From positions 1 to 64,000 of the IMG/VR virus record IMGVR_UViG_3300024359_000008: DNA of 64,000 nucleotides. One strand, 5' to 3'. Each line of letters begins with the position of its first letter. Within the stretch, counting starts at the first letter, position 1. The notes below the pieces were generated by a model, which did no database searches, was not told the origin of the DNA, and saw only the letters and a program-made list of their open reading frames with translations. This stretch comes from a virus. Of this stretch, positions 7,544 through 30,614 are shown piece by piece. The translations under genes were made by a program, and so were the position numbers.

Positions 7544-10500
7544 CTAAACACTTGTTCTTCTACTGAAAAATCCTCCTTCATCTGTCGATAATGGTGGGTC
7601 TTCATTCAATCTTCCACCATAAGAACCTATAATATTAAAGTTTAAAGTAACTTCACACCACATAGGCTGAACTCTACCACCATCAAAAGTCCAAGGTGCA
7701 TCTGAATAACTATAAGAAACACTATTAACTACAATATCATGGTCTAACCAATCTCCTAAAGTTAAATGACACACAGGAGGTCTAGAAAAAGAAAATCCAG
7801 AATTAGTTCTTTCTGACAATCTATTTCTTGCAGGTCTAGTCATTTTAGCAATAAATTCCATTCTTTTTAAAAAATCAACTTTGCTTCCAGAAAAATAACT
7901 AGGTTGAAACATATTTTTTCTTTTCATTTCTGCAAGTTTCTTAACAGTATCTTCAGATTTGCTTTCTACATAATTATCTTCTCTAACTGTTGTATCAAAA
8001 CCTTCAAAGAATTTATATATATTTTCTCCTTGAGCTGTTTTTTCAGAATAAGAAACCCTCCTTTGAGCAACTAAAGTAGCTTCATCATCTAAAATGTTAG
8101 CTTGAGTCTTAAGCTCGTTTGCTTTTGTTATTTTTTCATCACTTTCTACCTTAACTCTTTTTTTCTCTTCTTCTGAAGCTGACTCATCAACATTTACTAT
8201 ACTTGCTTCTAACTTTCTAGCTTCAGCCCTTAATTCATCAGCTTGTGCAGTATTTGTAGCTATTAATTTAGAAAAATTATTATTCTCAAAATTTTCTATT
8301 ATTTTAGTAACTACACCATTTTGAGGATTAAAATCATAACCTATATCAACTTCTGTTGCAAAGTCAGTTAAAACAAAAAACGAAACACTACCATCTCTTG
8401 ATGAATTGCTGTAAGTATAAATTGGTTCTGGTCTTCCTAAAAATGTAGTAGAGTTCCAACTTGCAGAATCACCATGTTGAAAACTCTTTATATAAGCTGG
8501 GAAAGACATTGCAGAACCTTCTATAGCTGGTATAGAATAATTCGTCAAAACAAACCTTAATGTTTCAGCACCTTGTGGTGCATAAGGATTTTTAATACTA
8601 TATCTATTAAAATTCTTTTTATATTGTCCATCACTTTTCTTTCCTACAATAAAAACACTAGAAGAGCCCTCATTACCTTGTACGTTAAAATTTTGTGCAA
8701 AAGCAATTCTATTATCTGAAGCTATTGTATTAATGACATGCCTAACACCTCTCCTTCTACTACTTTCTCCATCAAAATCAAAAGCTATAGTGTCTGTTGT
8801 ATCAGTTTGAGAAGCCATAGAAACTCCTGTACCTAATTCTTGTGAATCATTTTGAGAAAGTGGTTTTAATATTTTTTCAGGAGAACTACTTAAATATTGT
8901 CCTCCATTTTGAGTTATTACATCTGCTGGAGTTGTGTTTGTTCTGACTTGTAATCTTTTTTGTATTCCAGACTTACTCAATAAATCTTGAAAGCCTGGTG
9001 AACCAAAACTCCTTAACTGTTCAATAGCATTTTGATTTCCAGGTTGATAATTATAACCTGGCTTAATTTGAAAAGTATTTTGTTGAACATTATGTAAAGA
9101 AATAAGATTTGTTATAAAACCTTCACTTTTAGGAGAAGAATAAAAACTTAAACCATCATCAGGTTTAGAAGAATCATCTACTAATGATGTACCATAAATA
9201 CCATATATATTTGATATACCTTCTATATTTTTTAGACTTTCTAATGAGTTTTTTTGAAGCAAATAATCTCTTCCACCAGAATTAATTTGACTAGAAGATA
9301 CCTCATCAAAAAACCTCTTAGATTCCTCATCATCAAAAACACTTTTTAAACTATTACCATTATTATTTAAAGCTTCATTTGCCTTCCTAAAAATACTACC
9401 AGAAATTTCAAGTCTAGAAACACCAATATAATCACTACTACCTGCCGTTATAATATTAGCACCTAAATTAAATCTACTAGGATTTTTTGATAATTGTTCA
9501 TTTCTAAAAATTTTAGATAAATTTTCTATATCTGAACCATTTGAAATATTAGCAGATTTTTGCTCTTCCCTTTCAACTTTTGATATTTCAGATAAATTAA
9601 TATCACTCTCTACATTGTGACTTAAATTATTACTTCTAAAACTAATAGAGCCATTAGATAAATCATTAGGTTGTGAAATATTATTATATAAATTATTCAA
9701 TCTAAAAGCATCTGAATCATCTTCTAAATTACCACTATTTGAAGTATTAGAATTTATATTACTAACTAAATATTGAAAACTATCTCCAGCTAAATCAGAA
9801 TTAGAAGAAACGTTAGATATTAAGTTATTATCCCTTGTTTGAGTAGAATCATTTTGCAAATCACTATTACTAGTTACATTTGTTGATAAATCATCATTCC
9901 TATATACAACAGAATCATTAAGTAAATCTGTCTGTATAGATGTATTTTTAGATAAATCATTCTGCCTAATAGATGTTGAATCAGATTCTAAATTAGAAAT
10001 TAAAGGATTATTATAAGATAAATCATCATTCCTAAAAACTTCACTATCTTGTTCTAAATTTGAAACTTTAGGGTTATTATAAGATAAATCATCATTTCTA
10101 TATACTCCAGATTCAAATTCTAAATTTGAAATTTTAGGATTATTATTAGATAAATCTTGTTGCCTAAATTCTATAGAATCATTTTCTAAACTAGATGAAT
10201 TTGAAGTATTATTTTGTAACCTTTCATTCCTAAAACCTTTTGAATAATCTTCTAAATCTGATTTTTTTGATTCATTTTTAGACATTAAAGTACTATTAAA
10301 ACCATCAGAAAAAGATTTTAAATCAAAATTTTTATTTAAATTTTTATTTTCAGAATCATTCCTATAAGGTATGGAATTTAATTCCAAATTAGAATTTAAA
10401 TTATTATTTTTAGAAAAATTATTTTCTCTTATTTCAACAGAACTATTTTCTAAATTATTATTTGAACTTACATTCTTATTTAATGAATTATTTCTATATT

Positions 10501-11482
10501 CTTCTGAATTTACATCTAAATTGAAATTTGTTTTATTATCATTTTTTGATTCATTAGAACTTTTATAAACTAAAGAATCACTTAATAAATCAGAATTATT
10601 TTGTAAATTTTTTCCAATAGAATTACTTCTATATATAGAACTATCTGAATCTAAATCTGAATTTTTATTTTCATTTTTATATTCATTATTGTTTCTAAAA
10701 ATCTCAGAATTTAATTGTAAATCTGTCTCACTTTCTTTATTTTTAGAAGTATTTCCATTTCTAAAACTCTCTGAATCAATAATTAAATCACTATTATTAG
10801 AAATGTTTTTAGATTCATTTAATTGTCTTACACTTTTTGATTCAGAGGATAAATCATTTAAACTTTCTTTATTATACTTTAAGTTTTTATTTCTAGCTTC
10901 TGAATTATCTAAGTCTAAATTTGAATTGTAAGGATTATTATCTTTTGATACGTTTTTAGATAATAAACCATCTCTAATTTCAGTACTAAAATTATTATTT
11001 AGTGCTGTATCATTATTATTATTTAGCGTTGTATTTTTTGAAATATTTTCATTCCTATAAACTTTAGATATTGTTTCTAATGTTTTTGTAAGGTTTAAAT
11101 TTTTTTGTACAGCTTTTTTTCTAGATTCTTCTCCAAAATCTTCTATCTTTTTAGAAGATTCAATTAATTTATTTTTAGACTCTAACCTTCTTCTTTGCAA
11201 CTCACCACTCTCTTCTAAATTAACTTGATTAGAAACAAATTTACTTAATAAACTATCTCTTATTATTTGAGACTCTGTTTCTAAATCATTAGAAGATATT
11301 ATATTTTTTGAAATATTCTCCTTTCTAACTTGAGGATATATTACATCATAAACATCTTTAGGTTTTTCTAAATTTTTAGATAGCAATTTACCTCTAACTT
11401 GATTAGAATACTCAGAAAAGAAAGCATCTAATCCAGTTCTTCTTTCAAATTCTTCAAAAGTCTCATCGTAAGGAGTGTTCAT
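7544..11482 (-). CDS. Baseplate/tail-tube-associated protein with about 28 tandem 22-residue repeats
   Basis: The protein has 1312 residues. Residues about 50-672 consist of some 28 tandem units of 22 residues with the pattern R-N-x-x-L-S-x-N-x(4)-S-[DN]-L-x-x-[DS]-S-x-x-[FY]; well conserved copies are RNDDLSYNNPKVSNLEQDS and RNDDLSYNNPLISNLESDS. The stretch is very rich in Asn, Ser and Asp and lacks Cys. The C-terminal half (about 880-1312) looks folded: NYSIPAIEGSAMSFPAYIKS, a beta-rich segment, a charged helix (about 1080-1150), then PPVCHLTLGDWLDHDIVVNS and WCEVTLNFNIIGSYGG. The last pattern resembles the C-terminal beta domain of phage tube-initiator or baseplate proteins (gp48/gp54-like). 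It lies between the tape measure and gp53-like genes, where such a protein is expected. I do not recognise the repeat family. A flexible spacer, a ruler or a coat around the tube are possible roles; all are inference. Confidence 0.6.
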   Translation of the reverse strand: MNTPYDETFEEFERRTGLDAFFSEYSNQVRGKLLSKNLEKPKDVYDVIYPQVRKENISKNIISSNDLETESQIIRDSLLSKFVSNQVNLEESGELQRRRLESKNKLIESSKKIEDFGEESRKKAVQKNLNLTKTLETISKVYRNENISKNTTLNNNNDTALNNNFSTEIRDGLLSKNVSKDNNPYNSNLDLDNSEARNKNLKYNKESLNDLSSESKSVRQLNESKNISNNSDLIIDSESFRNGNTSKNKESETDLQLNSEIFRNNNEYKNENKNSDLDSDSSIYRSNSIGKNLQNNSDLLSDSLVYKSSNESKNDNKTNFNLDVNSEEYRNNSLNKNVSSNNNLENSSVEIRENNFSKNNNLNSNLELNSIPYRNDSENKNLNKNFDLKSFSDGFNSTLMSKNESKKSDLEDYSKGFRNERLQNNTSNSSSLENDSIEFRQQDLSNNNPKISNLEFESGVYRNDDLSYNNPKVSNLEQDSEVFRNDDLSYNNPLISNLESDSTSIRQNDLSKNTSIQTDLLNDSVVYRNDDLSTNVTSNSDLQNDSTQTRDNNLISNVSSNSDLAGDSFQYLVSNINSNTSNSGNLEDDSDAFRLNNLYNNISQPNDLSNGSISFRSNNLSHNVESDINLSEISKVEREEQKSANISNGSDIENLSKIFRNEQLSKNPSRFNLGANIITAGSSDYIGVSRLEISGSIFRKANEALNNNGNSLKSVFDDEESKRFFDEVSSSQINSGGRDYLLQKNSLESLKNIEGISNIYGIYGTSLVDDSSKPDDGLSFYSSPKSEGFITNLISLHNVQQNTFQIKPGYNYQPGNQNAIEQLRSFGSPGFQDLLSKSGIQKRLQVRTNTTPADVITQNGGQYLSSSPEKILKPLSQNDSQELGTGVSMASQTDTTDTIAFDFDGESSRRRGVRHVINTIASDNRIAFAQNFNVQGNEGSSSVFIVGKKSDGQYKKNFNRYSIKNPYAPQGAETLRFVLTNYSIPAIEGSAMSFPAYIKSFQHGDSASWNSTTFLGRPEPIYTYSNSSRDGSVSFFVLTDFATEVDIGYDFNPQNGVVTKIIENFENNNFSKLIATNTAQADELRAEARKLEASIVNVDESASEEEKKRVKVESDEKITKANELKTQANILDDEATLVAQRRVSYSEKTAQGENIYKFFEGFDTTVREDNYVESKSEDTVKKLAEMKRKNMFQPSYFSGSKVDFLKRMEFIAKMTRPARNRLSERTNSGFSFSRPPVCHLTLGDWLDHDIVVNSVSYSYSDAPWTFDGGRVQPMWCEVTLNFNIIGSYGGRLNEDPPLSTDEGGFFSRRTSV
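9465..11335 (-). repeat. Coding tandem repeat array, period 66 nt (22 residues)
   Basis: About 28 consecutive in-frame units encode [FY]-R-N-x-x-L-S-K-N ... S-D-L-x-x-x-S. DNA copies are diverged except for the three adjacent units at about 9995-10150, which are close to identical. A few units at the array start (about 10930-11060) are longer than 22 residues. The unit ladder is regular enough to be seen as a recurring 'ttc cta ... gat aaa tc' pattern on the plus strand. Confidence 0.85.
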
Positions 11483-11499
11483 TATTGTTTATATTTATT

Positions 11500-11507
11500 T
11501 ATAAATA
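11500..11507 (-). promoter_or_regulatory. Candidate late-type element TATTTATA
   Basis: The coding strand reads TATTTATA, 17 nt before the ATG at 11482. A similar octamer on the opposite strand overlaps this site (11492-11498), so orientation is ambiguous here. Confidence 0.4.
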
Positions 11508-11523
11508 TTTTAAAATAAAAATA

Positions 11524-14500
11524 TTATTTTAAATGTTTAGTGTCCTTTAAAATAATTTCTTGTAAATCTTTACCGTCTATTTGTAATTGTACAACATGAG
11601 TAACTTTTCTATCTTCTGCTTTATTAATTTCTGCAACAAATTTACCCATTTCCGCTCCACCTTCTGCCATAACCTCAGAAAGTTGTTGAAGCTTTTCCAT
11701 ATTCATTGCAGCTACAGCAGCTTCTAATTGAGCAACACCAGCACTCATTCTCTCTAAACCATCAGCTCCCATTTGTAGATTTGGAGCTAAACTTGACATG
11801 TCATCTTTTAGTGCAGAAATTGCACTCAACATAACAGTTATACCCAAAATAGAAAGAGGGTTAAACATTAATAAACCAGCTGCAGCGAAACCTAACAAAG
11901 CAGGTCCTAATGCGTTAAGAGCACCAGCTAAACCTATTAAGCCACTCCATTCAGTTGTTGCCATTGATATTAATAATGGTGCAGCTTGAGCCAACATAGG
12001 CGCAGCTTGTGCTAACATAGCAGCTCCAATTAATAAACCTACACCAGCAATTGCAGTATCAATCCCAAAAGCACCTATAGCCTCTGCAAATGGTGCCAAA
12101 CCACTCCAGTCTGCATCTTTTATTTGCTCTAAAGGAGCGAGAGCTTGTACTAAATAATTTCCAGCTTGACTCATCATATAAGCTCCAACTAACAATGCAG
12201 CTCCAGCAATAGCTAAACCGCCTGCTCCAAGTAACAAGAAAGGCCAAGCAAAAGCCATACCTACACCTAACGCAGTCAAAGCGGCAACAACCAATATAGC
12301 TACACCAACACCAGCTAATACATTTAACCAGTCAACATCACTCATCATTTGTGCAGCATAAGCAAAAGGAACTAACGCTAATCCCATTGTACCCATAGCA
12401 AGAGCACCCTTTATGACATCTCCCATTTTGACTTTTCCTAAAATTTTAGTTGTCAACCAAAAACCACCAGCCATAATCGCCATAGCTCCAGCTGCAGCGA
12501 TAAGTTGTGAACCGTCAGGAGCTCCTACTGCAGATATACCAGCCATAAACAAAGCTACAGATGCTCCAATAGTAATTAAAGCAAATCCTAATTTTAAAAT
12601 ATCTCCATATTTAACTTCCTTGAACGATTTAAGACCTTCTGCCATAGATTCTATCCAACCTCCTTTAGCAGAATCTCCTTGTGGAGACTCTGGCGGTGTA
12701 GGACCTTGAATTGAATTACCTCCTGGTTTAATCTTGCTAAACATACTTTTAACACTTCCTAAAAAACCTTTTCCGCTCATTGAGGCATTAAACCCTCTAG
12801 CCATCATAATACCATTAGCAAAAGCTTTGGCTGGACCAAATAAAAGCATCATAGTAGCCATAAAACCTCCTATAGCAGTTTTCATACCTGTACCTAAACT
12901 ATTTATCCATTGAACTACATTGGTAGCAATTTGTACAGCTTTCTGTAAAAAAGGTAACAACACATTAGTAAAAGAAGTTTTTAAATTTGTAATACTTTCT
13001 TTTAAGCCCATATTTTGATTAGCCTGCTCTTCCAAGTCAGCCTTTTCTTTAGCTTTCTGGTCCATCAATGTCTTTATTTGTTGTTGATTCATATTTTGCA
13101 AATCATCTAAACCTTCAACACCAGCATTGACACTTAATTTACCATCTTTAATACTTGTAGCTTGCATTAAAAATGCTTTTTCTTCATCAGTTAAATTTTC
13201 TCCCAATAAACTTGGAGGTAACATTTCTAACTTTCTGTTATCATCTGCATTTTGAGCAATCATTTTTTGAAGACTATCCATAGATTGTCCTGTAGCATCA
13301 GAGACCATTTGCAATCTATCTACATCTATTGGGTCAAATTTATATTCACCATCTTCATTAAAAGCACCTATATCTTTACCCATTTGACCTAATATTTTTT
13401 GCATCTCTTCTGGACCTTTACGTGCAGCAGATAATAATTGCATAGGGTCTATAGCAGCAAATGAACCACCAGCCAATTGTAAATCAGCAGCCATTTGCAT
13501 TGCTCCTTCTATATTTCTAGCTCTTTTACCAGTTTCAAATATTTCATCCACATTCATTCCAAGCCTTTTTGATTCTAAGACCATCTTCCTTAAAGAAGCT
13601 TCTCCTCCAGTGAAACCCATTTGACGCATTTTTGACATACTTTTAGACATTTCTTGCATCACTTCTTTACCACTTAAACCATAAGCGGCAGCATCTTTCA
13701 TAGTTGCTGATGCATTTTCAGTCATTGCTTGAGTATTAGAACCAAATTTTAAATATTCTGCTGCTAATTTAGCCGTTTCTGCAGCATTTAAACCAGTCGC
13801 TTTTCCCATAGCAGCCAAATCTACTGCTGCTTCTTTTAAAGCACCAAAATTAGTAGTACGAAGTTCTTTTCCCAATTCACCCATGAATGCAGTCGCTTCT
13901 TGAACACCCATACCAAAACGTGCAGCTTCACCTGTTAATTGACTCATTCCAACAGCGTTTTGGTCAAAAGCTATACCTGTATCTATTTGTGCTTTTTTAA
14001 TAGTTGCATCATATTCTTTAGCTCCATTAATTAGATTTTCAAAACTAAAACCTTTAGTTATGTTTTGACCTATTGCAGAAAGACCAGAAGATAATGAAAA
14101 TGTAGTTTTTTTAAAGTTATCAATTTCATCAGAAACTATTGCCATTTCAGCTGACAATTCTTTACCTTCTTCAACAGATTTTGCTAATTCTTGTGTTAAT
14201 TTTTTATCTAAATTTGCAGTTTGTATTTTTTCCATAAAACCATCACCAAACTGACCCAAACTTTGAGATAAAGCCATAAAATCTATTTCACCTTTGTTCC
14301 AATGTTTTGATAATGCTTGAGCTTCTACTGTACTAAGACCTAATTTATCAGCAAATTGTTCAGAATTCTCAATTGCTACTCCTGATTTTTTAATTAAATC
14401 CTGAAATTGTTGATTCATTTCAGCACCTGATTCTAAACTTTTTTTCTTTAAGTCGTCTAATCTTGTAGTAAGATGTTCAGTTGCTTTTGCAAATTCATCA

Positions 14501-20154: not shown

Positions 20155-20622
20155 ATGAATGAAGAAGAAAAAAAGAAAAAAGTTAACTCAATTTTAAAAC
20201 AAACTAAAAGAAAACTTTTAAAACCCAGAAACCAAATAAAGAAAATTAAATATTTACATGCTCAATCTTATAGGATGAGCAAAAATACAACTTGGCCTGA
20301 AAGAGAGTTTGAATCTATCCTCAAAGAAATGAATATAGAATATGAATCTCAAAAAATACTTAAAGGTAAGATATATGATTATTATATACCATCTGCTAAT
20401 ATGTTATGTGAAGTTGATGGTGATTATTATCATGGAAATGAAGAAAAATATGAAACTTTAAACGAAATGCAAAAAAAAGCGAAACAAAACGATAGATATA
20501 AAGATATCATTGCAAAAGGCATGGGTTACGGAATGTTTCGCATTTGGGAATCTGAACTTAAAAATAGTAGAGATTTAGCAAAAGAAAGAATAATAAACGA
20601 AATCTTAATTAAGAAACTCTAA
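20155..20622 (+). CDS. Vsr/DUF559-like endonuclease, possible homing endonuclease (EDxHD type)
   Basis: The 155-residue protein contains TTWPEREFESILKEMNIEYE, YDYYIPSANMLCEVDGDYYH, QKKAKQNDRYKD and YGMFRIWE. The E in WPER (49), D75 in YDYYIP, the EVDGD block (86-90), H93 and RIWE fit the Vsr-like PD-(D/E)XK fold shared by DUF559 proteins and by stand-alone phage homing endonucleases of the EDxHD group. A basic N-terminal 40 residues could bind DNA. The gene is on the plus strand and its 3' end overlaps the 3' end of the RecD2-like gene by 18 bases. Free-standing enzymes of this type have been linked to fractured genes with split inteins; this window has such a gene (DnaE) about 6 kb away. Whether this enzyme cuts a homing site or has a repair role cannot be read from the sequence. 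Confidence 0.75.
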   Translation: MNEEEKKKKVNSILKQTKRKLLKPRNQIKKIKYLHAQSYRMSKNTTWPEREFESILKEMNIEYESQKILKGKIYDYYIPSANMLCEVDGDYYHGNEEKYETLNEMQKKAKQNDRYKDIIAKGMGYGMFRIWESELKNSRDLAKERIINEILIKKL

Positions 20623-23600
20623 TTCAAATTCAGTTGTTTCATAATGTTCTTTCAAAAAGTATTGTAAAGAAGTTTGTCTTATATTTGGGTCTATATTATC
20701 TATACTTCTCTTAAACGCTTCTCTTTCGCCTATTAAAATTCCCATTTTTTTTGCTCTAGTAAGTCCTGTGTAAATAAGATTTCTATAAAGCATTATATAA
20801 TGTTGGTTTAATATCGGAATTATTACTATCTTAAACTCACTACCTTGAGATTTGTGTATAGTTATAGCATATGCTAATTCTATTTCTATTATATTAGACC
20901 TTTCATATCGTACAAGTTTAGTTTTTTTAGAGTCACCATAATTAATAATCAAACTATAATCTTTAGTATCAATTTTAGTTATATAACCAATATCACCATT
21001 AAAAACATTTAAATCATAATTGTTAGCTGTTTGTATAACCCTATCTCCTTCTCTAAAAGTTCTTTCTCCTATAGTTATTTCTTTTTTGTTTTCAGATTTT
21101 GGATTTACAGCAACTTGTACTCTCTTATTAATTTCTTTAGTTCCAACAGAACCTTTATTCATAGGTGTTAATATTTGTATTTCATTATCTTTACCCATAT
21201 ATTTTTCTATGGTTTCACTATATAATTTAACTATCATATCAATAGCATTCAAGCCATATTTAAGTGTTGAATTTGGCTCATTTTGATATTCTAAATTCAT
21301 AGATGAATCAATAAACATACAATCACTTCCATCTTTCCACATTTTAGGATTTGAAATTGGAGTTTCTACATTTGGAGTTTCACCTTTATTTATAGTATGT
21401 GCATAAGTAATAATTTTTGATTTTTCAGCTTGTCTAAAAACTTTTTTCAAACTAAACACCTTAACACATTGACTATTAATTAAATCTGATATTAAATTTC
21501 CTGGGCCAACAGATGGTAATTGGTCTTTATCTCCAACTAAAACAATTTGTGTATTTGGCGATATAGCTCTAAAAAATGAAGAAGCTAACCTAATATCAAT
21601 CATAGAGGATTCATCTAAAATAATAAAATCACATTCCAGCATATCTTTTTCAGATTTTCTAAAATTACCATTACCTGCATCCCATTTTAATAATCTATGT
21701 ATTGTTTTTGATTCTGCACCTATAACTTCAGACATTCTTTGAGCTGCCCTTCCTGTTGGTGCTGCTAAAAGTACTTTTTTACCTAAAGATAAAAGTATAT
21801 CATAAATAAACTTTACAGTAGTGGTATTATGAGTAACGACATAATTACCTAAAACAAATCTTTTATTTCCATCAATTTCAAAACCGTAATAATCTCCTTC
21901 TCCTTTATCTACCAACTTAAAACCAGAATGTAAATGATTTTTATTTTGATTATTCATTGCTTTTTTTCGCTTAATTTTAACAGGTACTCTTTGTAAATTT
22001 CCACTTATATTAATTCTATAAACTTTACAACTATAATAACTACCATCTTCTCTTTTCATTGTAGCAATCTTATCGGTTATAGATGTTTTAAAACCAAGAC
22101 TAGAACTTAACTCAAATATATCATATGCTAATTTTTTATTTTTTTGAGTTATTTCATATATACCACTACCAGTTAAATGACCATCCGAATCTATCAAACC
22201 TGCAAGTAAACTTAAACGATGCTCCCTGGAGTTAATTAGATGCTCATTAGGTATATGCTTATTATTAAATACATTTTCTTTTTTTAATAATGAATATAAA
22301 GACTTTTTTCCACCTGTAACAATTAAACTAGAAGCTCTATTAAGATTTTCTCTTAATCTAAATTTATAACCATTGTTATCTGACCATTCTCTAGAATAAT
22401 CTATTATTTCTTTATCTATATTTGTTATTATAAATGTTTTTGAGTTACTATGACCATCACCTAACCACAAACCTAACAAATAGGGGTCTAAATAAGTTTT
22501 CTTTAAAGGATATTCAACTCCTACACTATACTGCATTAATCTATGTCTGTTTCTTTTACTAACTTTCAAATAATCCTTAATAGATATATCTACAACATCA
22601 CCTTGAGAATATTTTTTACCATTAATTGTTATATCTCTCTCTTTAGTGTTATAAACAAGAGAAAGTATATGAGATTCATTACATCCCCAAATTTTTCCAT
22701 CATTAGAAATTACATCATACATTCTCTCTTTACCTCTCGCTAAACTCAAAACTTTTCTTGGAGTAGAATCATCTCCCATTAACAAATCTCCTTCTTTAAT
22801 GTTTTCCACCTTATTTTTAGTCCCATCAAACATCAAAACAGTTGTACCCTTCTTTAAACATTTGCCAACGCCTGGACCTCCTGTTAAAATAGACAAACCA
22901 TTAGAAACAACTCCTATAACTGAATCATATTGTTCTTCACTAAGTTTTATTTTAGAATTAGACAACATTTTATCTAACCTTTCTTTTAAATCACTTGTAT
23001 TGTTAGCATATCTTTTCTTTGATAATCTAACCACCTTTTCTGCTACATACATTTCATCATAATACAAATCTCTAGAATAAAACCTTTTTTGTTCTCTTAT
23101 TTTATCTTTAGAGAAATTTATAGATACTATCTTCTCTTCTAATTCCTCTTTATTTAAAATATATTCTATTAATGTATTAACTTCAATTCCAATTAATTTC
23201 CTAACTCTTTCTTTTGTTTGTTTTTCAGTTAAATAACAGTGTCCATCAGATTGATTATTAGATAAAATATGATGTACAGCTGCAGTAACTCTTTCTTCAC
23301 TTTTTTCATTGAAACCTAAACTCATAGCTAACTTATCAGCCATTGAAAATCCAAACCCAACTATATCTGTAGCCAATCTATATGGATTATTTTTTAAAGT
23401 TGAAATAGAATCTATACCATACTCTTTGTAAATTTTAACAGCCGAAGAAGTGGCAACCATATGGTCTTGCAAGAAAATCATAATATTATTCATTTCCCTA
23501 TTTTCTTTCCAACTCTCCTTAAGCACTTGTAATTTACTCCTATTTATTCCCTCTACTTCAATTATTCTATCAATGTTATTCCTAAAAATATCTAAAGCTT

Positions 23601-23940
23601 CATCACCGAAATAATTAACTATCTTTTTAGCTGTAACAGGTCCTATCCCTGGAAAAAATCCTGAACTTAAATACTTAACAAGAGATTCTGTTGTTGCTGG
23701 AGGCATTTCTTGACAAGAGTTAGTATTAAATTGTTTTCCAAACCTAGCATGTTTAGACCAATAACCTTCAAATTTCATTGTAACACCTTCAAATACTTTT
23801 GGTTGATTTATTGTTACGGTTATATTATCTTTAATGTCTTTATTATCAACAACTTCAACACTCAAAACTCCATAACCATTAATTGGATTATGAAACTTAA
23901 CTCTTCTTATAATCCCAACAAAGGAAGTTATATTATCCAT
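20605..23940 (-). CDS. RecD2-like 5'-3' DNA helicase with in-frame intein
   Basis: The precursor has 1111 residues. The N-terminal part has an OB-like segment (about 1-80, GIIRRVKFHNPINGYGVLSV) and helix-hairpin-helix motifs (FPGIGPVTAKKIVNYFG about 96-112, then VEGINRSKLQ), as in RecD2. The helicase Walker A is GGPGVGK/TTT, interrupted after Lys360 by a 345-residue intein (361-705). Walker B is FIILDESSMID, and the end has YAITIHKSQGSEF and YTGLTRAKKMG, typical superfamily 1 motifs. After splicing the helicase is 766 residues, near the size of bacterial RecD2. It would unwind DNA in phage replication or repair, ATP-dependent. It closes a four-gene operon starting at 25575, with gaps or overlaps of at most 8 bases. 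As Walker A is split, the unspliced protein should be inactive. Confidence 0.88.
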   Translation of the reverse strand: MDNITSFVGIIRRVKFHNPINGYGVLSVEVVDNKDIKDNITVTINQPKVFEGVTMKFEGYWSKHARFGKQFNTNSCQEMPPATTESLVKYLSSGFFPGIGPVTAKKIVNYFGDEALDIFRNNIDRIIEVEGINRSKLQVLKESWKENREMNNIMIFLQDHMVATSSAVKIYKEYGIDSISTLKNNPYRLATDIVGFGFSMADKLAMSLGFNEKSEERVTAAVHHILSNNQSDGHCYLTEKQTKERVRKLIGIEVNTLIEYILNKEELEEKIVSINFSKDKIREQKRFYSRDLYYDEMYVAEKVVRLSKKRYANNTSDLKERLDKMLSNSKIKLSEEQYDSVIGVVSNGLSILTGGPGVGKCLKKGTTVLMFDGTKNKVENIKEGDLLMGDDSTPRKVLSLARGKERMYDVISNDGKIWGCNESHILSLVYNTKERDITINGKKYSQGDVVDISIKDYLKVSKRNRHRLMQYSVGVEYPLKKTYLDPYLLGLWLGDGHSNSKTFIITNIDKEIIDYSREWSDNNGYKFRLRENLNRASSLIVTGGKKSLYSLLKKENVFNNKHIPNEHLINSREHRLSLLAGLIDSDGHLTGSGIYEITQKNKKLAYDIFELSSSLGFKTSITDKIATMKREDGSYYSCKVYRINISGNLQRVPVKIKRKKAMNNQNKNHLHSGFKLVDKGEGDYYGFEIDGNKRFVLGNYVVTHNTTTVKFIYDILLSLGKKVLLAAPTGRAAQRMSEVIGAESKTIHRLLKWDAGNGNFRKSEKDMLECDFIILDESSMIDIRLASSFFRAISPNTQIVLVGDKDQLPSVGPGNLISDLINSQCVKVFSLKKVFRQAEKSKIITYAHTINKGETPNVETPISNPKMWKDGSDCMFIDSSMNLEYQNEPNSTLKYGLNAIDMIVKLYSETIEKYMGKDNEIQILTPMNKGSVGTKEINKRVQVAVNPKSENKKEITIGERTFREGDRVIQTANNYDLNVFNGDIGYITKIDTKDYSLIINYGDSKKTKLVRYERSNIIEIELAYAITIHKSQGSEFKIVIIPILNQHYIMLYRNLIYTGLTRAKKMGILIGEREAFKRSIDNIDPNIRQTSLQYFLKEHYETTEFELEFLN
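21826..22860 (-). mobile_element. Intein with LAGLIDADG homing endonuclease in the RecD2 Walker A motif
   Basis: This 1035-base in-frame insertion encodes 345 residues. It begins with Cys directly after GGPGVGK (block A: CLKKGTTVLMFDG), has a block B-like GCNESHILSL, two LAGLIDADG helices (LLGLWLGDG at intein residues 128-136 and LLAGLIDSDG at 218-227), block F GDYYGFEIDG and block G VVTHN, followed by Thr as the +1 residue. All splice residues (Cys1, block B His, His-Asn at the end, Thr+1) are present, so it should splice, and the endonuclease Asp residues are intact, so homing may be active. Confidence 0.92.
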
Positions 23941-25649: not shown

Positions 25650-26123
25650 GAAAATAAATTAATTTTAGGTTTTGAAAACACAAAAGAACTATTTAGTTCT
25701 ATTCTTGGATTAAAAAATTCTTTCATAAATTTCCTATTAGCTATGATTACAGCCTCAACTTCATTTATTACTCAATACATTTGGGATGATGCATCAGCTG
25801 TATATTTTATGTTATTCTTAATTATTGTAGATGCTTCCACTGGAATATGGAAATCTATAAAATATAGAACTTTTAGTAGTAGTAAGTTACCTAGAGTTTT
25901 AGTTATCTCAATAATATATGTTTTAATGCTTGCTATTAGTTGGAACGCTGCAAAACACTCAACTTTATTCATTTGGTTACCTGGAATGGTTTATGGAGGT
26001 CTTATTGGAACTCCATTAGTGTCAATATACGAAAACTTTGCAGAATTGGGATATGTACCAAAAGGTTTATTGTATGATATTAAAGAAAAAATAAAACATT
26101 ACTTCAACAAAAAGCAAAATTAA
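25644..26123 (+). CDS. Phage holin (family 4-like, four TM segments)
   Basis: From ATG 25644 the protein has 159 residues. Hydrophobic segments lie at about 26-45, 51-66, 83-101 and 106-128; between them is LIIVDASTGIWKSIKYRTFS and SSSKLPR, the loop pattern typical of the Bacteroidota/Firmicutes toxin-secretion/phage lysis holin family ('D...G..ka.k...ssskl'). The charged C-terminus (DIKEKIKHYFNKKQN) should face the cytoplasm. A TTG at 25599 could add 15 residues but would lie inside the promoter region and adds only polar sequence, so I prefer 25644. It would make the membrane lesion at lysis. Its stop overlaps the stop of the facing DnaE C-half gene by 4 bases. No stand-alone endolysin is next to it. 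Confidence 0.75.
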   Translation: MKENKLILGFENTKELFSSILGLKNSFINFLLAMITASTSFITQYIWDDASAVYFMLFLIIVDASTGIWKSIKYRTFSSSKLPRVLVISIIYVLMLAISWNAAKHSTLFIWLPGMVYGGLIGTPLVSIYENFAELGYVPKGLLYDIKEKIKHYFNKKQN

Positions 26124-28393
26124 GATATTTTTCTAAATTGACAACCATCTTGAAACTTTAACCAACCTTGTTCTTTTTTGAATTTAGTTATATATATACT
26201 TCCCTCTTCAATTAAATCACTTATTCTATCATAAGCATCAGCCCAAACGACCATCTTAACCACAGAACCTCCATCACTCAACTCTAAAGACCAATATTTT
26301 TTACCTTTTATAGAATACTTTTCTTGAACACCCTTTATTACAAAATAATAGTATTTATTTGGATTCTCAAATTCCGTTACAGGTTCTATATTAAAATCAT
26401 ATTTATCCATAAAATCTTGCTTTAACTTAGATATCTTATTAAACAAATTCAAATCTAAACTACAAACTTTTATAAAATCTTTATATTTAACCTCTTCAGG
26501 TGTTGGTTCATATTTATCTTTTAAGTTTTCTTCAATAATATCAAATCTATTTTGTCCAAACAAATCCATTTGCATAGTATTACTTTTCATTTTATACTTA
26601 CGAAATTCCATTAACTCTTCTCTTGAACTAGACCAATCATCAAAAACACCAGCATTTAAACAAGCTTCAAAGTTAGCTTTATTAAATTTACTAAATTGAT
26701 GCATAAAAAACTTATCTTTATCAATGTCAGATACCCCAATAGACTGAAGCTCTTCAAATGCTATCTCACCCATTCCATTAATGCTAGAAAAGCCCATAAG
26801 TATAGTGTTTTCGTCTAACATTCCCCATTCCCATTTAGATTTTCTGTTGGGGGGTAAAATCTTTATACCTTTTGTAAAAGATGTCATAATAGCTGAAGAT
26901 AACCAAGATTCATCATCTTTAGCGTGATTCAATAAAGCAGTATAAAACTCTGTAGGGTAATATCTTTTCATATACAAAGTTTGCATCGCAACATAAGAAT
27001 AACTTACTGAGTGACTTCTGTTGAACGAATATCCCAAATACTTAACTAACCACTCCTCTATATCTTTAACTTCATTCTCTTCTAAACCTTTCGCTTTACA
27101 ACCCTCTTTAAATTTATCCCAAAGTTTTAAATATTCTTTATAATTCTTATTTGAAGATTCACTTTCTTCCAACTCTTCTCCAGATAATGTCTTTTTTATA
27201 ACCTTAGAAGCTTTATCCATAACTTTTCTTAAATTATCACCTTCCCCTAAAGACATTCCAGCCAATTCATGAGCAATAAACATTAATTGCTCTTGAAAAA
27301 TTAATACTCCATTTGTATTTCTTAATAAAGGCTCTAAAGATGGATGAACTAAATCAATAGACTCTGGGCTTTTTTTATTCCTTATATACTCCTCATGAGC
27401 ACCTACACCCATAGGGCCTGGTCTATATAATGCATTGGCAGCAACCATTTCTTCAAAGTTTTCTGTATGCATATTTTTTATAAGCTTAGACATTCCTTCG
27501 GATTCAAACTGAAATACTCCTTGATTATTACCACTTCTTAACTCTTCAAAAAGTTCAGGATTATCTAAATCAACATATTTAACTTCTTCAGAAATATCTA
27601 TACCTCTATTTTCTTTTACTAATTTAATGGATTGTTTTAAAACGTTTAAAGTAGTCAAATTAAGTCTGTCTAACTTTAGTATTCCCAAGTCAGACAAATC
27701 TTTACCACTACCAGATTCTTGAAAACCAGATACAGTAACACCTTTTACTATATTTACTGGCATATATTCCCAAACTGGCCCTGGTGTAATAACTATACCA
27801 GCAGCATGTTTACCTAAATTTCTAACTTGACCTTGTAGAGTTAAAGTGGTATCTATAATTTTTTTATTTGATGGATTTTGTATCCAACTTTTGACTACTT
27901 CAGATGATTCTGGTGAATTTGGATGTTCTCTTAACCAATCTTTTAAGTCTCCTTCATATTTCATAAAAGATTTTGGCATTTCTTTAGTTACAGCAAAAAC
28001 ATTCGAATCAAAACCTGCATCTTGACCAAAAGCTTTAGCCACATCTTTAAGGCACCCTTTTTCGTTAAAAGTAGAAAATGTAATTACAGGAAAAACACAC
28101 TCTTTTCCATATTTATTATAAAGAAACTCATCAGTTTTAACATCTGAACCAGTTTCGAAGTCTATATCAATATCAGGAGGAGAATTTCTAGCTGGATTTA
28201 AAAATCTCTCAAAATATAAATCAAACCTTAAAGGGTCAATTTTCGTAATATCAAGACACCATGAAAGAAGACTTCCTGCTGCAGAATTGTGTACACCTAT
28301 TCCCTCAATATTATAAGAATGTGTTTCTTCAACAGTTAAATCATGAACTTTACCTTTGTAATTTTTAAATTTTCTACTTTTTAGTTTTGCCAT
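26120..28393 (-). CDS. dnaE: DNA polymerase III alpha (DnaE-type), C-terminal half with C-intein
   Basis: The protein has 757 residues. Residues 1-36 are the C-terminal fragment of a split intein, containing KGKVHDLTVEETHSYNIEG and ending GVHN. The extein begins at Ser37 with SAAGSLLSWCLDITKIDPLR and FERFLNPARNSPPDIDIDFE, where the palm aspartates 74 and 76 are catalytic in DnaE; LKLDRLNL (about 241) supplies the third acidic residue. Fingers and helix-hairpin-helix segments follow (YLGYSFNRSHSVSYSYVAMQ about 450-470, then YYPTEFYTALLNHA), with a C-terminal OB-like domain (YSIKGKKYWSLELSDGG). It lacks the N-terminal exonuclease and PHP domains, which are on the next gene upstream; the two must be joined by protein trans-splicing to give a polymerase of about 1327 residues. 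Confidence 0.92.
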   Translation of the reverse strand: MAKLKSRKFKNYKGKVHDLTVEETHSYNIEGIGVHNSAAGSLLSWCLDITKIDPLRFDLYFERFLNPARNSPPDIDIDFETGSDVKTDEFLYNKYGKECVFPVITFSTFNEKGCLKDVAKAFGQDAGFDSNVFAVTKEMPKSFMKYEGDLKDWLREHPNSPESSEVVKSWIQNPSNKKIIDTTLTLQGQVRNLGKHAAGIVITPGPVWEYMPVNIVKGVTVSGFQESGSGKDLSDLGILKLDRLNLTTLNVLKQSIKLVKENRGIDISEEVKYVDLDNPELFEELRSGNNQGVFQFESEGMSKLIKNMHTENFEEMVAANALYRPGPMGVGAHEEYIRNKKSPESIDLVHPSLEPLLRNTNGVLIFQEQLMFIAHELAGMSLGEGDNLRKVMDKASKVIKKTLSGEELEESESSNKNYKEYLKLWDKFKEGCKAKGLEENEVKDIEEWLVKYLGYSFNRSHSVSYSYVAMQTLYMKRYYPTEFYTALLNHAKDDESWLSSAIMTSFTKGIKILPPNRKSKWEWGMLDENTILMGFSSINGMGEIAFEELQSIGVSDIDKDKFFMHQFSKFNKANFEACLNAGVFDDWSSSREELMEFRKYKMKSNTMQMDLFGQNRFDIIEENLKDKYEPTPEEVKYKDFIKVCSLDLNLFNKISKLKQDFMDKYDFNIEPVTEFENPNKYYYFVIKGVQEKYSIKGKKYWSLELSDGGSVVKMVVWADAYDRISDLIEEGSIYITKFKKEQGWLKFQDGCQFRKIS
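28286..28393 (-). mobile_element. Split intein, C-terminal fragment (36 aa)
   Basis: Starting at the gene's own ATG, the fragment encodes block F-like VHDLTVEETHSYNIEGIG and the block G end VHN, with Ser as the +1 extein residue. The length fits natural split C-inteins (about 35-40 residues). It is complementary to the N-fragment at 28518-28796. Confidence 0.92.
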
Positions 28394-28514
28394 TATTATT
28401 TTCTTTATGTTCTTGTTTTGCTTTTCTATTTTATTAATTAATCAAAAATTTCACAAACTAAACATATTATATAAATCATAAACGAATAATTAATTAAAAG
28501 ATTTTCTCATAATT

Positions 28515-30614
28515 CTAATATTTATTTATATCAACAATATCATCTTCTTCAGTTAAATTTTTAGCTTCCACCCACCCACGATTTTCAGTAAGAATTTCAT
28601 GGTCAAGAGTACATTCTATCACTCTACCATCATCAAATTTAAGTTCAATAATCTCTTCTTGAATATCATACTCCAATGTATCAATAACTTTTCTTTCATC
28701 TCCGAATGCATCAATTACCTTATCTCCAATTTCAATTGTATCTATTGGAACATACATTCCATCAGCCATTTTTACTCTACTTCCTGGCAAAAAACAACCC
28801 CTCCCAGGGCCAACTTCTATATCATTATCAGCACAAAATCTTATTAATTCCCAAACAACCAGAAAATAATCTAACATCTTCTTATCTCTGATGACATCCA
28901 ATTCATAATCTAATCTCTTTCTATATTCTTCAATTTTCTTTTCATCTATTTTTATTGGACCTTTCTTTTGATATAAACTAAGTTTTTGGTTTAATTTGGC
29001 ATGCGAAAGTCTTCTAATTATCTCTTCAGTATCTTTTGTTTTAAAAAATTCAAAAACATCGTTAGTAGGTTTATATTGAGGATATTTTTCTACATTAGTT
29101 TCAAAATCAAAATTACATAAAGAAGATATTTTTTCACTATTAATCATACATATTCTAACAAAATCTTCTTCATAATCATATGCAAAGGATTCATTCATTT
29201 CGAATATATCAGATTCTGAAGGATAATACATATCTCCATTTTCTTTTGTTCTAGCTTTTTTGATAGGTCTTTTTTGATTAATTGATATCAATACATCTTG
29301 AAGAACTTTTTCATTCTTTTTAGGAAAGTAAACATCGTTTGAAACAATAATAGCCATATTATACTTGTTAGACATATTTATAATAAATTTATTATATTGT
29401 CTTTGTATCTCATTGTCTTCTAGAGATATTTCGGCTATATAATTTCTTCTTCCGAAAAGGTTAAGCATTTTAACTAAATATTCTTCAGCTTGTCTGTATT
29501 TACCCATTTGTAAATATTTAGATATAGTACCATGTTTTGAACTGGTAGTTAATATCAAACCTTCTTTTCCTTCTAAAATCCACTTAGTTTTTATTCTTGG
29601 AACTCTATAAAAACCTTCAGCAAATGAAAGATAATTGATTTTATTTATATTAACATATCCTTCATCATTTAAAACTATTATTTTTTGCAAAACATTAATA
29701 TCTTGCTCTTTTGGTTCATATTGACCACCTATACTATCATTTAAAAAGAATTCACAACCAATTATAGGTTTAATATCTTTTGATTTACATTTTTGATAAA
29801 ACGAAAAAGCACTAGATAAACTACCTTTATCAGTTAAAACTAAAGTTTTATGATTATACTCTTTAGCCATACTTATATAATCACTTGTGGAGCCAGCACC
29901 TTCTAAAACAGAATGATAAGTATGTAAGCCGAAATTAACCATTGAATGGTCTATTGGAACAGAGCCATTTTTTTGCTTCCATTTATTTATAATTTCTAAT
30001 TCTGAACTTTTTGAGTCTAAAAATTCTAAAACATCTTCTCCAAACCCTAATGCACCAACTCTTCTTAACTCAAAAAAACATTTAGCTAAAGCTTCAACGT
30101 CAATTAAAGCATCGTGGGCATCTTCAAATGTTTTATTAAAAAGTATTTTATGGAGTTCTGTTAAAGTTGGTGGTTTTAAACCGTTTTTGCCTTGTATTCT
30201 ACAAAAGTTTACTGTTGAATTCATAGTACATATATGAGTAATGTCTCTCATATAATTTTTCATGTTCAACCTATAAAATTCACATGCAGTTACCTTGTTA
30301 TCGAAACTAATATTATGAGCTACTAAAAATTTTGATTTCTCTATATCTTTAATAAACTCATTTAAAGCTTGTTCTAAAGGTACACCTTCAAAGTTGGCTC
30401 TTTCATTAGTTATTCTATGAATCCTAATACTTTCTTCAGGTATTATAAATTTATCTGGCTTTATGATTCTGTTATTTGAACCAATCTCCACACCATTAAT
30501 ATCGTAAACCTTCCATGCTAACTGAACTATTCTTGGCCAATTATTAACATCGGTTATGGGAGCACTGAAATCTTCTGGCAACCCTGTTGTTTCTGTATCA
30601 AATATTATAAACAT
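28515..30614 (-). CDS. dnaE: DNA polymerase III: DnaQ-type exonuclease + PHP + palm start, with N-intein (N-terminal half)
   Basis: From ATG 30614 the protein has 699 residues. Residues 1-190 are a DEDDh proofreading exonuclease: Exo I FDTETTG (5-11), Exo II VAHNISFD, Exo III HDALIDVEA. A PHP domain follows (about 227-520), but its metal ligands are altered: HTYHS in place of HxHS and LTDKGSL in place of TDHGxL. The palm begins at about 575 (LDYFLVVWELIRFCADNDIE) and stops at GPGRG. The last 93 residues are a split intein N-fragment starting at Cys (CFLPGSRVKMADGMY). Fusion of DnaQ directly to DnaE in one chain is unusual; in PolC the exonuclease is inside the PHP domain. A start at 30623 is possible but that codon lies in the -7 box of the promoter, so 30614 is preferred. 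Confidence 0.9.
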   Translation of the reverse strand: MFIIFDTETTGLPEDFSAPITDVNNWPRIVQLAWKVYDINGVEIGSNNRIIKPDKFIIPEESIRIHRITNERANFEGVPLEQALNEFIKDIEKSKFLVAHNISFDNKVTACEFYRLNMKNYMRDITHICTMNSTVNFCRIQGKNGLKPPTLTELHKILFNKTFEDAHDALIDVEALAKCFFELRRVGALGFGEDVLEFLDSKSSELEIINKWKQKNGSVPIDHSMVNFGLHTYHSVLEGAGSTSDYISMAKEYNHKTLVLTDKGSLSSAFSFYQKCKSKDIKPIIGCEFFLNDSIGGQYEPKEQDINVLQKIIVLNDEGYVNINKINYLSFAEGFYRVPRIKTKWILEGKEGLILTTSSKHGTISKYLQMGKYRQAEEYLVKMLNLFGRRNYIAEISLEDNEIQRQYNKFIINMSNKYNMAIIVSNDVYFPKKNEKVLQDVLISINQKRPIKKARTKENGDMYYPSESDIFEMNESFAYDYEEDFVRICMINSEKISSLCNFDFETNVEKYPQYKPTNDVFEFFKTKDTEEIIRRLSHAKLNQKLSLYQKKGPIKIDEKKIEEYRKRLDYELDVIRDKKMLDYFLVVWELIRFCADNDIEVGPGRGCFLPGSRVKMADGMYVPIDTIEIGDKVIDAFGDERKVIDTLEYDIQEEIIELKFDDGRVIECTLDHEILTENRGWVEAKNLTEEDDIVDINKY
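28518..28796 (-). mobile_element. Split intein, N-terminal fragment (93 aa)
   Basis: The fragment begins with Cys directly after the DnaE motif GPGRG, has block A (CFLPGSRVKMADG), DTIEIGDKVIDAFGDERKV and block B IECTLDHEILTENRGWVEAK, then ends EEDDIVDINKY and a stop. The 93-residue length is near that of the cyanobacterial DnaE N-intein. No endonuclease sequence lies in the 121 bases between the two halves. Confidence 0.92.

What the first reader, a model, noticed from the sequence alone, without database searches (positions are those of the whole stretch)
26120..30614. Fractured replicative polymerase: exonuclease-PHP-DnaE split in two genes joined by a split intein
The upstream gene ends ...GPGRG followed by a 93-residue intein N-fragment; the downstream gene starts with a 36-residue intein C-fragment ending VHN, followed by SAAGSLLSWCL. 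Joining the exteins restores the DnaE motif GPGRG-SAAGS exactly. The two genes are adjacent and on the same strand, separated by 121 bases. Trans-splicing would give a polymerase of about 1327 residues. Both essential catalytic parts (palm aspartates, and the GRG segment before them) end up on different chains, so replication depends on splicing.
Basis: partly seen in the sequence, partly recalled or inferred. Interest (0 to 1): 0.85.

Follow-up and report, generated by a model that had tools for sequence, protein, structure and literature searches.

The report
Phage DNA polymerase split by intein
A large virus of bacteria carries the gene for one of its DNA-copying enzymes in two pieces whose proteins bear matching halves of a self-splicing element that should weld them into one enzyme; the arrangement is of a known kind, but relatives show the same enzyme intact, in two, in three or in four pieces.

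Summary
Confirmed. Minus strand 28515-30614 encodes exonuclease-PHP-first palm segment (606 aa) plus a 93-aa intein N-half; 26120-28393 encodes a 36-aa intein C-half plus the other 721 aa of DnaE. Class-1 splice residues are present, and a relative 82% identical to the joined product (L127) is one uninterrupted gene with exactly the predicted GPGRG-SAAGS junction. Trans-splicing is the best reading (0.9); no splicing was measured.

Corrections. The phage also has a family A polymerase gene (479-2113), so 'replication depends on splicing' is unproven. And the case is one of many: 15 complete pairs at this site were compared; 9 of 12 other gaps examined hold a nuclease-like ORF, which is gone here.

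Relatives carry split inteins at two more sites. L003, otherwise nearly identical to this phage, has gained a second one beside a cluster of silent changes, as homing would leave; L005 has three (four genes). Gut and Cellulophaga-type phages have two-chain DnaE whose ends look like intein halves without splice residues, probably dead split inteins.

The window is a new member of a known kind; the family pattern is the more interesting part.

The parts
28797..30614 (-). N-extein, 606 aa: DEDDh exonuclease (aa 4-181), PHP (aa 231-397), start of the DnaE palm (aa 536-606), ending GPGRG
   Evidence: Pfam RNase_T 3e-13, PHP 1.1e-27, DNA_pol3_alpha 7.4e-14; last Gly aligns with E. coli G363 through the neighbouring S364
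28518..28796 (-). Intein N-half, 93 aa, starting Cys; stop codon 28515-28517
   Evidence: C1 and T..H conserved in 15 of 15 complete pairs; Hint fold model
28394..28514 (.). 121-base gap; no nuclease ORF; no terminator-like site, promoter-like sites at chance level (3 found, 2.9 expected)
28286..28393 (-). Intein C-half, 36 aa, ending VHN
   Evidence: VHN in 15 of 15 complete pairs
26123..28285 (-). C-extein, 721 aa, from Ser+1: rest of palm with D74, D76, D242 of the chain (E. coli D401, D403, D555), fingers, HhH, OB; stop 26120-26122
   Evidence: Pfam DNA_pol3_alpha 1.9e-46, DNA_pol3_finger 2.7e-45; alignment to 5fku_A
28183..28184 (-). Site 2, uninterrupted here (ARN-SPP); carries a split intein in L005 and L125
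27016..27017 (-). Site 3, uninterrupted here (SFNR-SHS); carries a split intein N-half in the near-identical contig L003, and split inteins in L005, L085, L089, L090, L091
479..2113 (-). Family A DNA polymerase, 544 aa: a second polymerase of the same phage
   Evidence: DNA_pol_A 2.7e-27,

Best explanation
The two genes encode the halves of one exonuclease-PHP-DnaE polymerase, broken by a class-1 mini split intein at GPGRG|SAAGS. After translation the intein halves bind each other, Cys1 and Ser+1 carry out the acyl shifts, Asn36 of the C-half cyclises, and a 1327-aa polymerase is left. The gene was fractured when a split intein with a free-standing nuclease-like homing gene invaded an intact dnaE (the state still seen in L127); the homing gene was later lost here, leaving 121 bases and an intein that stays because losing either half would break the enzyme. 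Shown: anatomy, splice residues, intact relatives with the exact junction, relatives with the nuclease-like gene in the gap or reduced to a remnant, strong conservation of the intein protein. Inferred: that it splices, that unspliced halves are inactive, the order of invasion and loss.
For: C1, CT..H, G.V.D and VHN are the same in 15 of 15 complete pairs; +1 is Ser in 14 and Cys in 1. L127 (82% to the joined product), L126, L122, L123 and L124 have the uninterrupted motif at this site. Intein N and C are 88% and 86% identical to L005 while exteins are 48% and 53%; four-fold third bases agree at 40% (10 of 25) and 30% (3 of 10) in the intein, 43% (34 of 79) and 41% (47 of 115) in the exteins, chance 44%: the intein protein is under purifying selection. 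Nuclease-like ORF of 272-348 aa in 9 of 12 other gaps examined and a 65-aa remnant in L091; remnant in L005 (read by eye). Bacillus phage G and Lactococcus phage 949 hold uninterrupted inteins at the same site. N-half model matches inteins.
Against: No splicing, expression or protein data. Intein family scores lie below the curated cut-offs. The block F His is Ala in 2 of 15. A two-chain DnaE without splice residues seems to exist in other phages at another break, so splicing is not compulsory in principle. No co-conversion trace at site 1 against L127, L126 or L125, so the invasion is inferred from distribution alone.
Confidence: 0.9

Rival explanations
1. The two chains work as a two-subunit polymerase without splicing; the intein halves only hold them together.
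For: DnaE in two chains with intein-like ends lacking splice residues in gut and Cellulophaga-type phages. A ribonucleotide reductase split by a homing gene works as two chains (Friedrich et al., as cited in PMC10448857, passages).
Against: Here all splice residues are kept, with 15 of 15 pairs alike; the break falls between residues aligned with E. coli G363 and S364.
Confidence: 0.06
2. The split dnaE is dispensable or on its way out, and the family A polymerase replicates the phage.
For: Family A polymerase in this phage and in L005.
Against: Both reading frames are open, exonuclease and palm residues are kept, and the intein is under purifying selection. Family A was found in only 3 of 16 split-dnaE records, most of them fragments.
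Confidence: 0.1
3. Splicing is a timed switch that delays or conditions polymerase activity, and this is why the split intein is kept.
For: Only by analogy with reported conditional protein splicing (PMC7360933, search listing only).
Against: No regulatory feature seen in the gap; close relatives do without the intein. Not exclusive of the best explanation.
Confidence: 0.1

Closest known systems
Fractured genes: split intein with a free-standing homing endonuclease (Dassa et al. 2009, doi 10.1093/nar/gkp095; not held, content recalled; AceL NrdHF is described as such in PMC7891396, passages)
   Same: DNA-synthesis enzyme broken into two genes by a split intein with halves of typical size (93/36 aa); 13 of the 30 loci read carry a related C-half in an IMPDH-like gene (recognised by eye), the gene of the known IMPDH-1 split intein; relatives have a nuclease-like gene between the halves
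   Different: No endonuclease here; host gene is dnaE. I could not check whether dnaE is among that paper's enzymes
Cyanobacterial split DnaE inteins (Ssp, Npu DnaE)
   Same: Natural split intein in DnaE; Npu DnaE is among the best fold matches
   Different: Other insertion site (cyanobacteria Y|CFN, recalled; here GRG|SAAGS), adjacent genes, a virus. The phage site 3 (SFNK|SHS) lies four residues further on than the cyanobacterial site as I recall it
Aes123 PolB1 split intein of T4-like Aeromonas phages (PMC11923092, passages)
   Same: Natural split intein in a phage DNA polymerase
   Different: Family B polymerase, cysteine-less intein, 120/39 aa
Bacillus phage G gp329 and Lactococcus phage 949 ORF116
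   Same: Intein at the same DnaE site
   Different: Uninterrupted inteins on one chain
Exonuclease-PHP-DnaE1 of some Bacteroidetes (PMC3919608, passages)
   Same: Exonuclease joined in front of PHP on one chain
   Different: Cellular and not split by an intein at this site in what I read

Membership tests
Natural class-1 split intein | Cys or Ser as first intein residue | tested here: met
   C607 of the N chain; Cys in 15 of 15 complete pairs
Natural class-1 split intein | Block B TxxH | tested here: met
   TLDH; T..H in 15 of 15
Natural class-1 split intein | Terminal Asn and a nucleophile at +1 | tested here: met
   VHN|S; VHN in 15 of 15, +1 Ser in 14 and Cys in 1
Natural class-1 split intein | Halves on separate genes, exteins joining into one known protein | tested here: met
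   Uninterrupted relatives L127, L126, L122
Natural class-1 split intein | Hint fold | tested here: met
   N-half alone; the assembled pair was not modelled
Natural class-1 split intein | Trans-splicing activity | not testable with these tools
   needs expression
Fractured gene (recalled definition) | Conserved DNA-synthesis or repair enzyme broken by a split intein | tested here: met
Fractured gene (recalled definition) | Free-standing endonuclease gene between the halves | tested here: not met
   121 bases without such an ORF. Nuclease-like ORF in 9 of 12 other gaps examined, so the window is not filed as a full member but as a likely derived form
Cyanobacterial split DnaE intein | Insertion at Y|CFN (recalled) | tested here: not met
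   Insertion is at GRG|S; the region around SFNR-SHS is uninterrupted
Bacteroidetes-type exonuclease-DnaE1 | Exonuclease N-terminal to PHP on one chain | tested here: met
   definition from PMC3919608 passages

The most novel reading that the evidence does not exclude
Phage DnaE is a multi-site hub for split inteins. The sites are filled independently (none; 1; 2; 1+3; 1+2+3 among relatives), so the same polymerase is made from one, two, three or four chains, in the extreme by three separate trans-splicing reactions; and in gut and Cellulophaga-type phages one such split intein has lost splicing but kept its two Hint-like ends as a permanent clamp, turning a selfish element into the interface of a two-chain polymerase.
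Probability: 0.45. Interest if true: 0.75.

Novelty: new member of a known kind. Interest (0 to 1): 0.5.

Why it matters
A DnaE whose palm is made on two chains, with the catalytic aspartates on one and the residue before Ser364 (E. coli numbering) on the other, should be active only after protein splicing. The family offers a natural series (intact gene; split intein with nuclease-like gene; with a remnant of it; split intein alone; split intein apparently dead), which makes the question of how gene fracture becomes fixed directly testable. The split inteins at three sites may also serve as protein-joining tools.

Tried and rejected
Vertical inheritance of the site-1 intein from the common ancestor of window and L005: favoured, dropped, because the closest relatives found of each (L127 82%, L122 82%) have no intein; separate, not recent, acquisition fits better. 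The Mantel test (r 0.59, 0 of 2000 permutations as high, 15 loci) shows some shared history of intein and flanks, so neither reading is pure.

Co-conversion at site 1 was looked for in window vs L127, L126 and L125: flanks are about as similar as the rest of the gene.

'Only one intein in this phage' (as searches suggested) was wrong: those models missed the LAGLIDADG intein in the helicase at 20605-23940, seen and confirmed. Intein counts from those calls are therefore lower bounds.

Group I or other known introns as cause of the extra breaks: Rfam gathering search of 10 loci, 0 matches.

A link between the dead two-chain ends and the site-2 intein of L005, which breaks the gene at about the same place, is not supported: hhalign E 0.011, probability 3.7%.

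Host genomes: the C-half alignment scanned in genome contigs gave 17 pattern matches and 0 relatives. Named phages with the split form at this site: none seen in the parts of the tblastn lists shown (40 of 125, 40 of 552, 30 of 401, 30 of 458 records).

Literature: ten searches; in the listings I saw nothing on a split intein in phage DnaE. Dassa et al. 2009 is not held, so absence from print is not claimed. The role of G363/S364 in nucleotide binding is recalled only.

Full report
What is there. On the minus strand, 30614-28515 encodes 699 aa and 28393-26120 encodes 757 aa, 121 bases apart. The first has an exonuclease (Pfam RNase_T 3e-13), a PHP domain (1.1e-27) and the start of the DnaE palm (7.4e-14), then from Cys607 a 93-aa intein N-half. 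The second begins with a 36-aa intein C-half ending VHN and goes on with the rest of DnaE (palm 1.9e-46, fingers 2.7e-45). Joined, the product is 1327 aa. Alignment to E. coli Pol III alpha (5fku_A) puts Ser+1 on S364, and D74, D76 and D242 of the C chain on D401, D403 and D555; the last Gly of the N-extein is thus the place of G363. That G363/S364 bind the nucleotide, and that those three Asp are the catalytic ones, is recalled.

The record. The window is part of a 72,739-bp virus record; a 232,514-bp record (L004) is identical over the 14,097 nt compared. Exonuclease in front of PHP-DnaE on one chain is described for some Bacteroidetes DnaE1 (PMC3919608, passages), and the nearest terminases include Flavobacterium phages at 32%, behind a Microcystis phage at 35%. 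A Bacteroidota host is plausible, not shown.

Is it a working split intein? Fifteen complete pairs at this site (the window included; the near-duplicates L043, L088, L092 and L096, the repeat fetches L082-L084, and L003 and L006, which share the window's sequence, left out; L044 is partial and is not counted) all keep Cys1, CT..H, G.V.D and VHN. +1 is Ser in 14 and Cys in L093, whose break is shifted by one residue. The block F His is Ala in L087 and L095. Between window and L005 the intein halves are 88% and 86% identical and the exteins 48% and 53%, while four-fold third bases agree at 30-43% in all four parts against 44% by chance: selection holds the intein protein. The N-half folds well (mean pLDDT 83.6) and the 50 PDB matches shown of 184 are inteins, hedgehog or intein-like domains. 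By sequence the nearest solved ones are NrdJ-1 (4.4e-4) and a bacterial intein-like domain (0.0015).

Intact relatives settle the junction. L127, 82% identical to the joined window protein, is one frame of 1333 aa with the same 14 residues up to GPGRG and the same 22 after it. L126, L122, L123 and L124 are also uninterrupted at the three sites discussed below. L128 is uninterrupted at the sites but has an in-frame stop elsewhere.

How widespread. A scan of viral contigs with the C-half gave 33 loci. Of the 30 read, 17 are DnaE (L082-L098) and 13 look like IMPDH (L099-L111; by eye, no family search). So the site-1 split intein is a patchy minority trait. Between the halves, 9 of 12 other loci examined have an ORF of 272-348 aa, L091 has a 65-aa remnant, L090 and L097 have nothing; L005 has a remnant (by eye), L094 overlapping frames (gap not examined), and the window nothing. 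Three of these ORFs were put to Pfam and match nuclease families weakly, below the cut-offs (L041: TnsA-like 6.4e-4; L042: Phage_endo_I 2.9e-5; L087: Phage_endo_I 4.3e-4); their shared PD...E.K pattern recalls the Vsr-like homing endonucleases of fractured genes (recalled). The nuclease-like gene seems to have been lost several times with the split intein kept.

More sites in the same gene. L005 has DnaE in four genes with three split inteins: GRG|SAAGS, ERN|SSPDID and FNK|SHS. L125 has only the second, with a 372-aa nuclease-like frame in its gap. L085, L089, L090 and L091 have sites 1 and 3. L003 equals L004 over the first 9,198 nt of the locus, then differs at six positions in the last 400 nt before a site-3 intein N-half; five of the six are silent and four of them fall in the last four codons. 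That is the trace expected if the intein arrived by homing with a little donor sequence. The contig ends before the C-half, so this second break is only half seen.

Splice-dead relatives. In Tenacibaculum phage Larrie, Cellulophaga phage phiST, Bacteroides phage BS-TP1 and many gut contigs DnaE is two genes broken near site 2. By eye, the 19 distinct N-chain tails (of 26) have no Cys directly after the extein and no TxxH; 11 of 11 gut C-chain heads end HG, GG or SG, not HN. The gut tails match the site-1 N-half profile (hhalign E 1.6e-5, probability 79%) and the heads the C-half profile (7.7e-4, probability 25%), with 0 of 60 column shuffles reaching either score. The Cbastvirus tails match only weakly (0.002, probability 14%), and the gut tails do not match the site-2 intein of L005 (0.011, 3.7%). 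One gut N chain hits Pfam Intein_splicing at 3e-4, below cut-off; the C chains tested from L067 and Larrie have no intein hit. The tail model is poor (mean pLDDT 62), no PDB match has E below 0.18, yet the first 22 are all inteins or hedgehog domains. Tails are 45-96% identical between gut contigs, and third bases agree poorly in most pairs, so they are under selection. I read them as split inteins that lost splicing; another Hint-like origin is not excluded, nor is a splicing chemistry that I do not recognise.

Dependence. The phage also has a 544-aa family A polymerase. Family B was found in 0 of 3 records. Family A is in 3 of 16 split-dnaE records, most of them fragments. That DnaE is the main replicase is likely but not shown.

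Novelty. Natural split inteins are known in cyanobacterial DnaE, in a phage family B polymerase (PMC11923092, passages) and in fractured genes; several inteins in one gene are known in haloarchaeal MCM, and split inteins in the replicative polymerase have been called constructive neutral evolution (PMC10643990, passages). The window is therefore a new member of a known kind. PHROGs 13169 and 21652 align with the chains across their intein parts, so proteins of this shape are already in databases. In the listings of ten searches I saw no account of the three-site pattern in phage DnaE or of its apparently dead offshoots; the key 2009 paper could not be read.

Noticed in passing
window 20605-23940 (-): RecD2-like helicase interrupted at its Walker A motif (GGPGVGK|C ... 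THN|TTT) by an uninterrupted intein with a LAGLIDADG domain (Hom_end_hint 9.5e-21, LAGLIDADG_3 6.9e-10).
   Followed up: partly
window 20155-20622 (+): 155-aa DUF559 (restriction-endonuclease-like) gene beside the intein-bearing helicase, on the opposite strand (2.2e-6, over the cut-off); perhaps a free-standing homing nuclease.
   Followed up: partly
record of L005 (G002) at 9846-13271, 54287 and 72365: Besides the three split inteins in DnaE, intein N-terminal matches at three places in one 1788-aa frame (terminase region) and at two further places.
   Followed up: no
L045 about 5900-6500: RecA/UvsX-looking gene broken by an intein N-half and C-half in adjacent frames without a gap (by eye); no family search.
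   Followed up: no
L113 3960-8218 (Klebsiella phage GArcari-2022b): DnaE in two frames broken at yet another place, the N chain ending in a Hint-like tail without obvious splice residues (by eye).
   Followed up: no
L086, L087, L088, L089, L095, L097: A further break of DnaE after the palm with no intein-like ends; in L087, L089 and L095 the next chain starts with an F.CGCKF stretch. Rfam found nothing in the five searched (all but L088).
   Followed up: partly
L117 (Chryseobacterium phage MA9V-3) 5633-9190: Isolated phage with uninterrupted DnaE, a possible intact control.
   Followed up: no
L037 (Bacillus phage G) 3914-7886: DnaE has a mini-intein at site 1 and is broken again by a gene annotated as homing endonuclease shortly after.
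   Followed up: no
L128 3985-8187: DnaE with no intein at the three sites but one in-frame stop between two long frames; sequencing error or real break not tested.
   Followed up: no
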